A program made the translations under genes and the position numbers. A stretch of DNA of 64,000 nt from the NCBI RefSeq assembly GCF_001625445.1, contig NZ_LWHG01000011.1, positions 1-64,000 of the forward strand, in the 5' to 3' direction. The notes under the pieces are model-generated. The model saw nothing but the letters and a program-made list of their open reading frames with translations. It was not told the origin of the DNA and ran no database searches. The DNA is from Haladaptatus sp. R4 (GTDB lineage Archaea > Halobacteriota > Halobacteria > Halobacteriales > Haladaptataceae). This document shows, one piece after another, positions 7,799 to 25,787 of this stretch (position 1 is the first letter of the stretch; every line of letters begins with the position of its first letter).

Positions 7799-8641
7799 TT
7801 AGAAAAGCGAATCCTTCGCCGAAAGCCGGAGCGTCCAATCGAACTTCGGTTTTTGGTCGGTCGGCCAACTCGCCTCGCAGGTCGCATTAATCGATTGCGT
7901 GCCTGCGTAGTTCCCATCCCATTGGACACCATACATGCCACCTGAACCGACTTTGGAATCAGGGTCGAATTTTACATGTCCTTTATTGAGCGGGAACTTC
8001 GCTGCAAGGTCGGTAACGTCAGGTGATTGTGCGGAGACAGAAACAGGACCTGATGCGAAGCTCCTGCCTGGCGAGTAGGCACCCATTTTGTATGACTTAT
8101 CTTTGAAATTGATCTGAGCTTCCAAGTTGTCAAATGACGGAATATCGCTTTTTGCACTCTGTTCCGCCTTCGAAGGACCAACTCCCGCCCAGAGCCAGAA
8201 TTGGTAGTGCTGGTTCCCGTTTTCACTTACCTTATCTGGAATACGATACAAGATGACCACTCCGTCAAGAAGAGCGTTCGCCTTTTTCTTGTCGCTATTG
8301 TCACCAAATGGTTTGCTTGCATCCCAGCTACCAACATATTCGAGACCGTGATCCGGTTCCGTCTGTGCTGTACCCCAAACCCCAGAGTTGCCGTATGAAT
8401 TGATTTTTTTGGATACGAATGAATTCAATTCGTGTTTTGACATCGCATTAGTCTCAGAAGAGATATTATTGTTACTAGTGGTTTCAGTCGATGATTGGAG
8501 GAGGCCAGCGCAACCAGCTACCGAAGTAGTCCCAATGGCAGCGGTTGTAACACCGACTTTCCGAATAAACTGACGACGACCTGCGTTTTTATTGGATGTA
8601 GAGTTCAGGGGGACTTTCATTGTCTTGCGAGATTTCTTCAT
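7799..8641 (-). CDS. Tat-exported lipoprotein of unknown function
   Basis: A 280-residue protein with a twin-arginine signal, GRRQFIRKVGVTTAAIGTTS, followed by the lipobox VAGC, so it should be lipid-anchored outside the cell membrane. A Ser/Thr/Asn-rich linker follows (SSTETTSNNNISSETNA). The rest is beta-rich and unassigned, with segments such as YQFWLWAGVGPSKAEQS and GMYGVQWDGNYAGTQSINA. Its base composition is lower in GC than its neighbours, and the upstream 390 bp are strongly AT-rich, consistent with horizontal acquisition. The predicted TATA is near 8672-8685 on the minus strand. An internal ATG at 8620 is an alternative start. No family was recognised. Confidence 0.8.
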   Translation of the reverse strand: MKKSRKTMKVPLNSTSNKNAGRRQFIRKVGVTTAAIGTTSVAGCAGLLQSSTETTSNNNISSETNAMSKHELNSFVSKKINSYGNSGVWGTAQTEPDHGLEYVGSWDASKPFGDNSDKKKANALLDGVVILYRIPDKVSENGNQHYQFWLWAGVGPSKAEQSAKSDIPSFDNLEAQINFKDKSYKMGAYSPGRSFASGPVSVSAQSPDVTDLAAKFPLNKGHVKFDPDSKVGSGGMYGVQWDGNYAGTQSINATCEASWPTDQKPKFDWTLRLSAKDSLF

Positions 8642-9030
8642 GAATCACTCAGTCGAATCTTAGTACAATTTGGATACTCATAAACATTCTTGTATGAAAA
8701 ATAGTGTGGCAGATCGAAATTATACTGTCTTCGCGTACTTGCCACCGGCGAGGTGGAAGTTGTAATGGAATCCTCGACCCGTACCCGCTGGCCGTTCTTC
8801 CCTACAGCAACCGGTGAATGCTTCTTGACCACCGTTGCGGTCACCGATCCACTCAATGAAATACCATTTTATGGTGTAGTTTTACATTATATAATACGTT
8901 CTATCCTATTAAAGAAATTGTATATTTTATTTTTTTATTTGTATTAGGTATTTATTTAACTATTTTGATTAATGCCAGATTCGAGGCGAATAAGCAAAGT
9001 AATAATCAATGAAACTACAACATACGATTG
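8642..9030. other. AT-rich intergenic region
   Basis: A 390-bp stretch with no credible gene. Positions 8870-8975 are almost pure A/T, with many TATA-like words. Short frames here have no family resemblance. It probably holds the divergent promoters for the lipoprotein on the left and the methyltransferase on the right. Confidence 0.6.
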
Positions 9031-22932: not shown

Positions 22933-22950
22933 GATAGGTCAAACCTATCT
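22932..22950 (+). terminator. Hairpin at the thermosome stop codon
   Basis: A perfect 8-bp stem (AGATAGGT, loop CAA, ACCTATCT) begins at the last base of the stop codon. It lacks a T-run, so it may protect the mRNA end or help termination. Confidence 0.5.
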
Positions 22951-23358
22951 CCAGTGTCGAGCGAGCTTCGTCTCGCGGACAAAGCTTGAACTAAAGCCGA
23001 TTTTCAGAGACTGTGGAGTGAAGTCTGAAACGAACCTCGCGGTTAATCGGGCTTTGACTACAGTTCCATTGTGACAAGGAGAAGACAGAGTTGTGGGGAA
23101 TGTCCTCGATTGAACCTCGGAGAGGAGCTCTTTTCGGAATCTTACTACTGAACAGCCATCAATGGAATAAGGTACGAGAATACTGGTATTCAGTTGAGAA
23201 GAAGTTATTTTCGGGAGATATAAACAGACAATGTTTGACAAACAAATAATCATCGAACATATTCAGTAGAGGATTATAAGTTAGAATATATCTTCCGTTG
23301 GTAACTATTGTAAAAATATGAAAAGTATAAATATATACGGATGTCAGAATAAATTGCA
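22951..23358. other. AT-rich intergenic region before the Tat paralogues
   Basis: About 400 bp with no credible gene. GC falls steadily to the right. TATAAATATATA at about 23327-23338 is a TATA box about 26 bp before the ATG at 23359. Confidence 0.6.
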
Positions 23359-24177
23359 ATGCGAGAAATTGAAAGGTTTGTAGGTAGTAGAAGAAATTTC
23401 ATCAAGAGGGCTGCAATAGGAGCAACCGCTGCTTCTGCTCTTCCAATTGTTCAAGCAAAGGAAAAACGTAGTAGCAGCGAGATCTACAAACAGGCACTGA
23501 AAGTTCAAGAGGAGACAGGAGATCGAGCAAAATTCCGAAAATACCTCCGAAATCATGGGATGTCTGTTGCAACGAACGACATGACGATCTCGGTTCCCGT
23601 TGATTCGGGAACAGAAAGTGGTCTTTCGACTCAGAAGCTTGATAAAAACGACCTCGAAATCGGGATCTCTCTTTCGACCGGCTGTTACCACGACGAATTC
23701 TACTCAAAAGTGACGTGGAATTGGGGTAACAATGACTGGGACGATTATGGTGATGATCCGAAAGACAATATTGCGATGTCTTGGAAGGAAAACTCCTGGT
23801 ACGTCCCAGCGGACCAGGCTTGGGGCAGTTCGTACATTGCAAATGCGAACGATTACGACTATAGCGCAAACGGAATTTCGATGCGATATTCCGATGGAAA
23901 GGACATGGGATTACCAGGCGACACTAGTGGTGAACGCTGGATTGCTGCGACCCTCAAAAAACCAAGCGACGAATACAATGCAGGAGCACGACAAGTATGG
24001 GGCGTCTATAACCACTGCTATGCTGGCGGTGCTATCAAATCCGTATCCATCGGGTTCGGAATCGTCAGCGCTACGTTTGACACGAGTGCCAAGCAATGGT
24101 ACAAAGGAACAGATGAGAATGGGAATAAGCTCATATTGAGTGAAGCCGATGCCACGGTGAACTGCAGCGGACTATAA
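23359..24177 (+). CDS. Tat-exported protein of unknown function, paralogue A
   Basis: A 272-residue protein with the signal GSRRNFIKRAAIGATAASAL followed by PIVQAKE, so it is exported folded. After the signal comes a helical part (YKQALKVQEETGDRAKFRKY) and a beta-rich domain rich in Trp, Tyr, Gly and Asp: KVTWNWGNNDWDDYGDD, MSWKENSWYVP, SSYIANAND, ERWIAATLKKPSD. Cysteines in STGCYHD, NHCYAGG and VNCSGL match those in the next gene and may form disulfides. TATA at 23327 gives a leaderless start. GC is low. The function is unknown; the downstream paralogue 11 bp away implies one transcript. Confidence 0.83.
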   Translation: MREIERFVGSRRNFIKRAAIGATAASALPIVQAKEKRSSSEIYKQALKVQEETGDRAKFRKYLRNHGMSVATNDMTISVPVDSGTESGLSTQKLDKNDLEIGISLSTGCYHDEFYSKVTWNWGNNDWDDYGDDPKDNIAMSWKENSWYVPADQAWGSSYIANANDYDYSANGISMRYSDGKDMGLPGDTSGERWIAATLKKPSDEYNAGARQVWGVYNHCYAGGAIKSVSIGFGIVSATFDTSAKQWYKGTDENGNKLILSEADATVNCSGL

Positions 24178-24188
24178 CAGATAGACCG

Positions 24189-24998
24189 ATGACTGACAAA
24201 AAAAATCGAGTTGGAAGACGATCTACTCTAAAGCTGGCCGGTGCAGCGATTGCTGGCCTCAATCTCCCGATAGCGGACGCACAACCACCCCGAGGGAAAG
24301 AGTTGTTCCAGCGTGCACTCCGAGTGCAAGAAGAAACCGGTGATAAAGGCGAATATAGGAAATACCTCCGTGATCACGGATGTAGTGTCTCGACGACAGA
24401 CATGAAATTCACGTTCGATCCAAATTCGCAACAGGGAGGTTTCACGACACAGAAGCTGGACAAAAACGACCTCGTAATCAGCATTTCCCTCTCAACAGAT
24501 TGTTATTACCAAGATTTCTTTGGTAAACTCACTTGGAATTGGGGCCGTAGTGACTTGGACGACATCGGTGACAATCCACGAGACGGAGTTGGTCTTATGT
24601 GGAAACAGGATTCGTGGCGTGTTCCAACTGATGGAGGAACATACGGAAGTAGTTACATAGGGAATGCAGACAGCCCAGTGATGAGTCCGACGGGTCTTGC
24701 ATTCACTTATCATGATGGAAACGACGTCGACTTCTTCGGTGGAGGTGGTGCAGATCGCTGGGTCGCGGCAGACCTTAAAAAACAGAGCGATAACTTTACT
24801 GCATCTGGCCGTCAGCTCTGGGCAGAGTATTGCCATGCATGGGGAGGAGGCCGATTCGAGTCGATAGATGTCATTGATGGGGATCTTGAACTAACGACTG
24901 ATGGATATGGCTACACCTGGTACAAAGGAACCGATGAAAATGGCAACAAGCTTATAACGAGCGAAGCGGATTCGACGGTTAACTGTACCGGATTGTAG
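24189..24998 (+). CDS. Tat-exported protein of unknown function, paralogue B
   Basis: A 269-residue paralogue of the previous gene, aligning along its whole length. The Tat signal is VGRRSTLKLAGAAIAGLNL. Shared blocks include ALRVQEETGDKGEYRKYLRD, TQKLDKNDLVISISLSTDC, KLTWNWGRSDLDDIGDNPRD, DSWRVPTDGGTYGSSYIGNA and a C-terminal block that differs from paralogue A at only three of 26 positions. Differences cluster in the loop between about residues 155 and 190. The strict retention of Trp and Cys positions suggests a kept fold, perhaps ligand binding. It is probably co-transcribed with paralogue A. No known family was recognised. Confidence 0.83.
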   Translation: MTDKKNRVGRRSTLKLAGAAIAGLNLPIADAQPPRGKELFQRALRVQEETGDKGEYRKYLRDHGCSVSTTDMKFTFDPNSQQGGFTTQKLDKNDLVISISLSTDCYYQDFFGKLTWNWGRSDLDDIGDNPRDGVGLMWKQDSWRVPTDGGTYGSSYIGNADSPVMSPTGLAFTYHDGNDVDFFGGGGADRWVAADLKKQSDNFTASGRQLWAEYCHAWGGGRFESIDVIDGDLELTTDGYGYTWYKGTDENGNKLITSEADSTVNCTGL

Positions 24999-25042
24999 AA
25001 ATCAAAAATATGTCGATATTTTATTAACCTTGATATAAGAAT

Positions 25043-25056
25043 AGATAAATATAAAT
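25043..25056 (+). promoter_or_regulatory. TATA box of the small lipoprotein
   Basis: GATAAATATAAATG is centred about 30 bp before the ATG at 25080, fitting a leaderless or very short leader. Confidence 0.55.
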
Positions 25057-25079
25057 GTTTGTTTTCTCAACATACCAAC

Positions 25080-25457
25080 ATGGATCGTCGGAAATTCCTT
25101 CGTATTCCAGCTTTTGCCGCGATTGCAACCCTCGCGGGGTGTTCGAATCCGCTCTCCAAAAATGACCCGAAGGCGAACGACATAACGATAGTCAATAAAA
25201 GAGACAACGTTGTGATGTTCGACTTCGTAGTGGCACACCCGAGTAGCGACGGCGGAGGAGTGGTGAGTTCGACCCGCCACAAAGTCAACCCCGGGAAAAC
25301 GACCATCGAAAACGTCGCCGACTTCGGAACGTACGACCTGTCGATTGCCGTCGATGGAATGCCCAACCGGAGTCGAATCTGGCACGCGACGGACTGCCAT
25401 CATCTCACGATAACGATACGGAAAGACAGCGTGAAATTCGCCGAGAAGACGTGCTGA
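25080..25457 (+). CDS. Small Tat lipoprotein
   Basis: A 125-residue protein with signal MDRRKFLRIPAFAAIATLAG and the lipobox LAGC, so a lipid-anchored extracellular protein. The mature part is a single beta-rich domain (DITIVNKRDNVVMFDFVVAH, NPGKTTIENVADFGTYDLSI) with two later cysteines (ATDCHH and EKTC). The layout resembles small immunoglobulin-like or cupredoxin-like domains, but no copper-site pattern is evident. It lies next to the Tat paralogues but has higher GC toward its 3' half. The start at 25080 puts the twin arginines at residues 3-4, as usual. Confidence 0.82.
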   Translation: MDRRKFLRIPAFAAIATLAGCSNPLSKNDPKANDITIVNKRDNVVMFDFVVAHPSSDGGGVVSSTRHKVNPGKTTIENVADFGTYDLSIAVDGMPNRSRIWHATDCHHLTITIRKDSVKFAEKTC

Positions 25458-25787
25458 TTCGGGGCAAAATACGGTTTCGTCGTCACGGGACGGTAAGCCG
25501 TAATCGAGGAGATGGAAAATCGGCCACCGTCCGATTTTTACCCCGAGTAAACCGCGGAGTCGTCTACTGAACTCGAACCGATTTTTGAATCCACGTCGAA
25601 TCGAGACGTGTTTGCCGGATGTTACTGCAATCAAACTAACGAATGTGAATCTCCTTCGAGTACTTTCGAGATCAAGAATTCACACGAATTCCCCCGAAAC
25701 ATTCCTCAAATCAGCAGAGGAGACGACGATCGGGAGCAAAAATCGGTAAAAGGTGGAACTAAGTGGGAACCACGTATCCCTCCAAAT
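25458..25787. other. Intergenic region without a recognised gene
   Basis: About 330 bp between the lipoprotein and the alanine dehydrogenase-like gene. Frames running through it show no homology. No clear hairpin or repeat was seen. Confidence 0.55.

What the first reader, a model, noticed from the sequence alone, without database searches (positions are those of the whole stretch)
23359..24998. Tandem Tat-exported paralogues of unknown family in a low-GC patch
Two full-length paralogues lie 11 bp apart. They keep Trp, Tyr and Cys positions and a C-terminal block with 23 of 26 identities, yet differ in a central loop. They resemble no family I know. Pairs like this may be secreted effectors, halocin-like or toxin/immunity-like products, or surface ligand-binding proteins. 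No immunity-like membrane gene is adjacent, and a lipoprotein follows.
Basis: partly seen in the sequence, partly recalled or inferred. Interest (0 to 1): 0.65.

Follow-up and report, generated by a model that had tools for sequence, protein, structure and literature searches.

The report
Haloarchaeal exported protein pair with lipoprotein
Two neighbouring genes of a salt-loving archaeon make exported proteins of a so far unnamed family that spreads between haloarchaea and often travels with a small membrane-anchored lipoprotein, a pattern expected of cell-cell recognition or antagonism genes, though no function has been shown.

Summary
In detail: two intact Tat-signal ORFs (272 and 269 aa, 50% identical, 11 bp apart) lie in a low-GC patch, followed by a lipoprotein gene. 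They match no Pfam, NCBIfam, PHROG, PADLOC or PDB sequence. They are not orphans: they belong to a divergent family found only in Halobacteria (57 of 391 genomes; up to five copies per genome). The members share a Tat signal, a neutral-to-cationic helical hairpin, and a nine-strand beta-sandwich with a covarying, probably disulfide-bonded, Cys pair. The pair sits in a variable slot between thermosome and ornithine-cyclodeaminase genes: absent there in all 16 relatives, GC3 about 0.47 against 0.83-0.88. Small lipoprotein genes adjoin about a third to a half of family loci (validation set 8/17; 12-fold over background, p = 3e-4), and in one case lipoprotein plus family gene alone are shared between two haloarchaeal families on 2.4 kb of 84% identical DNA. 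I read this as a mobile, polymorphic 'exported protein + surface lipoprotein' module, most likely for antagonism or recognition, with the lipoprotein as partner or immunity protein. Function is inferred. An apparent leukocidin-like fold did not hold up in the better model.

The parts
23326..23340 (+). AT-rich TATA-like box about 30 bp before the start codon of the first paralogue (archaeal-type promoter, presumed)
   Evidence: sequence; a similar 18-nt block recurs at 25045-25062 before the lipoprotein gene (repeat D5)
23359..24177 (+). first Tat-exported paralogue (P0001, 272 aa): signal 1-about 35, helical hairpin 39-65, beta-sandwich 68-272; Cys109 and Cys269 predicted to pair
24189..24998 (+). 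second Tat-exported paralogue (P0002, 269 aa), same architecture
25045..25062 (+). AT-rich block with TATA-like element before the lipoprotein gene (presumed separate promoter)
25080..25457 (+). small lipoprotein (P0003, 125 aa; lipobox LAGC; about 105-aa mature domain of a lipoprotein group common in Halobacteria)
   Evidence: 51% identical homologue in the same slot of G384 without the pair
22933..25787 (.). variable slot between thermosome and ornithine-cyclodeaminase-like genes that holds the three genes
   Evidence: synteny in 16 relatives, none with the pair

Best explanation
The two genes encode members of an undescribed, Halobacteria-specific family of Tat-exported extracellular proteins. 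Shown by sequence or model: twin-arginine signal; N-terminal helical hairpin (about 30 aa); nine-strand beta-sandwich (about 190 aa) with invariant Asp136, a conserved Y-x-H-T-W/Y motif and a covarying Cys109/Cys269 pair; patchy, multi-copy, horizontally moving; frequently next to a small lipoprotein gene. Inferred: the pair is exported folded and acts outside the cell in antagonism or recognition between haloarchaea. The beta-sandwich would bind a surface target, the little-acidic helical hairpin would be the part that disturbs or docks to an anionic surface (as the two N-terminal helices of HapP do once a halolysin frees them), and the lipoprotein, anchored on the producer, would bind the exported protein as immunity or docking partner. 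Duplication would broaden specificity.
For: No hit to any named family. Family only in Halobacteria, patchy, up to 5 copies per genome. Confident model, pLDDT 86 and pTM 0.86. Cys109/Cys269 covary, 12 both, 30 neither, 5 single, p = 4e-7. Lipoprotein genes within 1 kb: 0.160/kb against 0.030/kb in 60 loci; in 17 loci fetched afterwards 0.242/kb against 0.019/kb, p = 3e-4. Other Tat-exported genes have one within 500 bp in 1 of 23 against 23 of 73 for the family, p = 0.005. Lipoprotein plus family gene alone are shared at 83.7% DNA identity between genomes of two haloarchaeal families (L123/L124). Tree mixes taxonomic families. Hairpin net charge +0.01 per residue against -0.12 for the sandwich, p = 2e-10. 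Several members broken by stops. HapP precedent: PMC12893001.
Against: No activity, expression or binding data. Half or more of the loci have no recognisable lipoprotein neighbour. Lipoproteins of the same type are common elsewhere in haloarchaea (267 of 391 genomes), and 19 retrieved lipoprotein loci away from the family had no family gene nearby. In this very slot G384 has a P0003 homologue without the pair. P0003 seems to have its own promoter. The fold is a common beta-sandwich, equally at home in adhesins. The hairpin is not cationic in all members (22 of 47 above zero). Homology to HapP or to any halocin was not established.
Confidence: 0.38

Rival explanations
1. Surface ligand-binding or adhesion proteins: exported Ig/cohesin/pilin-like sandwiches that bind a polymer, S-layer sugar or another cell, with the lipoprotein as membrane anchor or receptor. 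Not antagonistic.
For: Best structural matches of the better model are adhesin and pilin Ig-like domains (EbpB Z 9.1, rmsd 2.9 over 123; SpaA Z 8.9) and the alpha-2-macroglobulin receptor-binding domain (Z 8.5). Conserved aromatic residues. Lipoprotein neighbour. The slot holds another exported protein in 8 congeners.
Against: Z about 9 for a beta-sandwich is near the level of chance resemblance stated by the tool. Strong divergence, gene decay and transfer of a two-gene unit fit conflict genes at least as well.
Confidence: 0.32
2. Leukocidin-like beta-pore-forming proteins; the tandem pair would be a bicomponent pore.
Against: TM about 0.3. With the better model (47 sequences, pLDDT 86) these chains only tie with unrelated adhesin sandwiches, Z 8.6 against 9.1. 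No Pfam hit to a leukocidin family in 47 members. No long amphipathic pre-stem was recognised. Most members are single genes.
Confidence: 0.07
3. A secreted enzyme or enzyme inhibitor, with the invariant Asp136 and the near-invariant Tyr217 and His219 as functional residues.
For: Asp136 invariant in 47, His219 in 42, Tyr217 in 41.
Against: No enzyme family hit; no catalytic fold among structural matches; the same residues can be structural.
Confidence: 0.13
4. The lipoprotein adjacency is only co-residence of cargo genes in accessory slots, and the family and lipoproteins have unrelated roles.
For: Lipoprotein relatives occur alone and in clusters; P0003 homologue without the pair in G384; gene order and orientation vary.
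Against: Other Tat-exported genes lack lipoprotein neighbours (1 of 23); a two-gene unit alone is shared between families.
Confidence: 0.3

Closest known systems
HapP (HFX_0892) of Haloferax mediterranei, protease-activated antagonistic precursor (PMC12893001)
   Same: Haloarchaeal exported protein with about 235-aa mature chain and two helices at the mature N-terminus (45 aa) followed by about 190 aa; here hairpin plus about 190-aa sandwich.
   Different: HapP sequence could not be retrieved; short peptides read from its primers (QGGGTVY, SELSK, SEANEND) are not a feature of this family; no protease activation known here; no lipoprotein is reported for HapP.
Halocins H4, C8, S8
   Same: Exported haloarchaeal proteins thought or shown to act on other haloarchaea; H4 and C8 precursors are of similar size (own knowledge).
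   Different: No hit of the family to any halocin model in Pfam or NCBIfam; halocin C8 carries its own immunity domain in the same gene (own knowledge), unlike a separate lipoprotein.
VARTIG modules of Thermococcales (PMC8416519)
   Same: Archaeal, variable gene modules with beta-sandwich domains, inferred for conflict or self/non-self recognition, function unknown.
   Different: VARTIG centres on a large multi-Ig protein with a hypervariable C-terminal domain; here a small single-sandwich protein and a lipoprotein in Halobacteria.
Gram-positive adhesin and pilin Ig-like domains (EbpB, SpaA)
   Same: Nearest fold among solved structures (Z about 9).
   Different: 4-7% identity, no sortase motif or isopeptide features tested, extra helical hairpin.
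Leukocidin/alpha-haemolysin beta-barrel toxins
   Same: Overall sandwich resemblance of the cap (Z 8.6-8.8), tandem paralogues.
   Different: 7-9% identity, no pre-stem recognised, tie with unrelated sandwiches.

Membership tests
Tat-exported proteins | twin-arginine motif followed by a hydrophobic stretch at the N-terminus | tested here: met
   Both proteins carry RR-x-x-hydrophobic; NCBIfam TAT_signal_seq above cut-off for the first; RR nearly invariant across A1
Any named Pfam, NCBIfam, PHROG or PADLOC family | score above the curated cut-off, or a significant E-value where a library has none, for the mature part | tested here: not met
Halocins | sequence similarity to a characterised halocin | tested here: inconclusive
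   No halocin model was hit in Pfam or NCBIfam; it was not checked that each halocin has a model there
HapP-type protease-activated precursors | homology to HFX_0892 and activation by halolysin | not testable with these tools
   HFX_0892 not found by native primer or peptide pattern in 148 genomes
HapP-type protease-activated precursors | two helices at the mature N-terminus followed by a separate domain | tested here: met
   model of P0001 mature chain: helices 7-21 and 24-33, then strands; HapP architecture from PMC12893001
Toxin-immunity pair | conserved linkage of effector and immunity gene | tested here: inconclusive
   Enriched lipoprotein neighbour and joint sharing between families, but only in part of the loci, and lipoproteins also occur alone
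Toxin-immunity pair | effector activity neutralised by the partner | not testable with these tools
   needs bench work
Leukocidin-family pore-forming proteins | cap-rim fold with significant structural match | tested here: inconclusive
   Z 8.8 and 8.6, tied with unrelated sandwiches
Leukocidin-family pore-forming proteins | sequence profile match | tested here: not met
   no leukocidin hit in 47 members or by profile against PDB sequences
Lipoprotein (P0003) | Tat or Sec signal ending in a lipobox Cys | tested here: met
   RRKFLRIPAFAAIATLAGC at 25080, regex test
VARTIG | large multi-Ig protein with hypervariable C-terminal domain | tested here: not met
   proteins are 269-272 aa with one sandwich

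The most novel reading that the evidence does not exclude
A new class of haloarchaeal antagonism system: a Tat-exported two-domain effector (membrane-active helical hairpin carried on a target-binding sandwich), inert on its producer because a surface lipoprotein encoded next door holds or neutralises it; the effector-lipoprotein unit moves between haloarchaea as a cassette and diversifies by tandem duplication.
Probability: 0.2. Interest if true: 0.78.

Novelty: new variant of a known kind. Interest (0 to 1): 0.48.

Why it matters
Few protein weapons or recognition systems of archaea are known, and most haloarchaeal exported proteins have no family. Here a family without a name in the libraries searched turns out to be recurrent, mobile and linked to a surface lipoprotein. 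That gives a concrete two-gene hypothesis (exported protein plus lipoprotein partner) that can be tested in a laboratory haloarchaeon, and a profile (A3) with which further members can be found.

Tried and rejected
VIA-align absence of other folds is not taken as evidence. Viral origin: no match of P0002 in phage records, no relatives of three members in IMG/VR, no viral structural match with E below 0.001; weak tests, close relatives only. HapP membership: native primer not found in genome contigs, degenerate QGGGTVY pattern hit an unrelated ORF. One chance resemblance (GGNVY in L063) was not taken as evidence. Lipoprotein as a strictly obligate partner: rejected, since relatives occur alone and in G384 in the same slot. 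Alignment A1 could not be used for pattern search and P0002 alone found nothing in genome contigs. Bacterial homologues: not seriously tested; only 197 genomes of the same phylum were searched, and all hits were in Halobacteria.

Full report
OBSERVATION. The window (G000:C11, a genome of 4.9 Mb) comes from a haloarchaeon: the named relatives of its proteins are all Halobacteria. Two ORFs on the + strand, 23359-24177 (272 aa) and 24189-24998 (269 aa), are intact and 11 bp apart. They are 50% identical over 263 residues, E = 2e-91, and 23 of the last 26 residues agree. Both start with a twin-arginine signal; one passes the NCBIfam Tat cut-off. GC falls to 0.43-0.49 and GC3 to 0.48 and 0.46, against 0.83 in the upstream thermosome gene and 0.88 in the downstream gene; the lipoprotein gene has 0.66.

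FAMILY. Pfam, NCBIfam, PHROGs, PADLOC and PDB sequences give nothing for the mature parts. A single-sequence search of 391 halobacterial genomes already finds relatives in 21. A profile of mature chains (A2, 20 rows) finds them in 57 of 391 genomes and 31 of 86 genera. In 197 genomes drawn from the phylum all seven positive genomes are Halobacteria. A profile of 47 members (A3) finds them in 12 of 28 genomes of the window's own family, with up to five copies. Some copies carry stops. Tandem copies also occur in G380 and G379. In the tree, the window pair are sisters (support 100/100), but the G379 pair and the G380 pair are split by copies from other genera, so tandem arrays arise both by duplication and by other routes.

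STRUCTURE. With 15 sequences the model of P0002 was middling (pLDDT 72), with 47 sequences the model of mature P0001 is good (pLDDT 86, pTM 0.86): two helices (P0001 residues 39-53 and 56-65), then a nine-strand beta-sandwich. The better one ties Gram-positive pilin and adhesin Ig-like domains (Z 9.1, 8.9), the alpha-2-macroglobulin receptor-binding domain (8.5) and leukocidins (8.6). The tool itself warns that Z near 8 may mean only a common arrangement, so I take the result as 'Ig/adhesin-type sandwich, no clear relative'. Asp136 is invariant in 47 members, His219 present in 42, Tyr217 in 41, and Cys109 and Cys269 go together (12 both, 30 neither, 5 single; p = 4e-7), which predicts a disulfide. 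The helical hairpin is much less acidic than the sandwich (mean net charge +0.01 against -0.12 per residue, p = 2e-10; +5 over 34 residues in P0001), but it is above zero in only 22 of 47 members.

LIPOPROTEIN NEIGHBOUR. P0003 (25080-25457) has a Tat-like signal and lipobox. I noticed such neighbours while reading 20 loci, then counted. In 60 loci a lipobox ORF lies within 1 kb at 0.160 per kb against 0.030 per kb further away in the same loci; 800 kb of haloarchaeal DNA away from the family gives 0.025 per kb. Because that set suggested the idea, I tested 17 loci fetched afterwards: 8 have a lipoprotein gene within 1 kb, seven of them within about 120 bp; 0.242 per kb against 0.019, p = 3e-4. 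Among other Tat-exported genes 1 of 23 has a lipoprotein within 500 bp, against 23 of 73 family genes, p = 0.005; this control is small and several of its rows are orthologues. Orientation varies (downstream, divergent, convergent), so co-transcription is not the rule. The lipoproteins fall into several groups by sequence: small ones of about 105-130 aa like P0003, others of about 150-170 aa, and PQQ-propeller lipoproteins of about 400 aa. The most telling case is L123 against L124: two genomes of different haloarchaeal families share 2.4 kb at 83.7% DNA identity, and this stretch is just the lipoprotein gene and the family gene, with no similarity in the rest of the 9 kb.

LIMITS OF THE LINK. 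Relatives of the small lipoproteins occur in 267 of 391 genomes, and 19 loci chosen by lipoprotein score away from the family had no family gene nearby; some lie in clusters of lipoprotein genes. P0003 seems to have its own AT-rich promoter element.

THE SITE. In all 16 relatives examined, thermosome and ornithine-cyclodeaminase-like genes are neighbours with 0.2-1.4 kb between them, and none has the pair there. In eight congeners the gap holds a different Tat-exported protein; in G384, of another genus, it holds a 51% identical P0003 homologue without the pair. The slot is therefore a site of changing cargo, and the pair was most likely gained in the window's lineage. A family gene with a lipoprotein also lies about 1.4 kb from a thermosome gene in G165, which may or may not be coincidence.

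MECHANISM. Shown: export signal, domain architecture (by model), family, mobility, lipoprotein enrichment. Inferred: extracellular antagonism or recognition, the lipoprotein as partner or immunity protein, the hairpin as membrane- or surface-active part. The nearest tested precedent is HapP of Haloferax mediterranei (PMC12893001): a precursor whose first 45 mature residues, two helices, kill haloarchaea once a halolysin cuts them from a 190-aa rest. The size and layout agree with this family, but I could not obtain the HapP sequence, so this is a likeness, not membership. A reading as surface ligand-binding protein with a lipoprotein anchor is nearly as likely. No function is demonstrated by anything here.

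VERDICT. A real and previously unnamed protein family with a reproducible genomic link; worth a bench test; function open.

Noticed in passing
window 22933-25787; L189-L196: Eight congeners carry, in the same slot, another Tat-exported protein of about 200 aa with a '...LDIDVKPxSxSNEI...SRGVVPVAV' motif; the slot seems to exchange exported-protein genes.
   Followed up: partly
L198 (G384:C1:2414668-2415033): A 51% identical homologue of lipoprotein P0003 stands alone in the thermosome-OCD slot, without the exported pair.
   Followed up: partly
L117 (G165:C1:1357000-1366000): A family gene plus lipoprotein gene also lies about 1.4 kb downstream of a thermosome gene in another haloarchaeal family.
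   Followed up: no
L173 (G175:C2:11500-18500), L171, L172: Clusters of several small lipoprotein genes in a row or divergent pairs, away from the exported family; purpose unknown.
   Followed up: no
L123:2557-4862 and L124:2722-5007: PQQ-propeller lipoprotein gene plus family gene shared at 84% DNA identity between two haloarchaeal families with no other similarity nearby.
   Followed up: yes
L141 and L142 (G057:C1:897000-906000 and 919500-928500): A stretch with an identical family gene appears twice, about 22 kb apart, with the flanking ORFs the same.
   Followed up: no
window 8001-9000: A second low-GC stretch (0.435) in the window.
   Followed up: no
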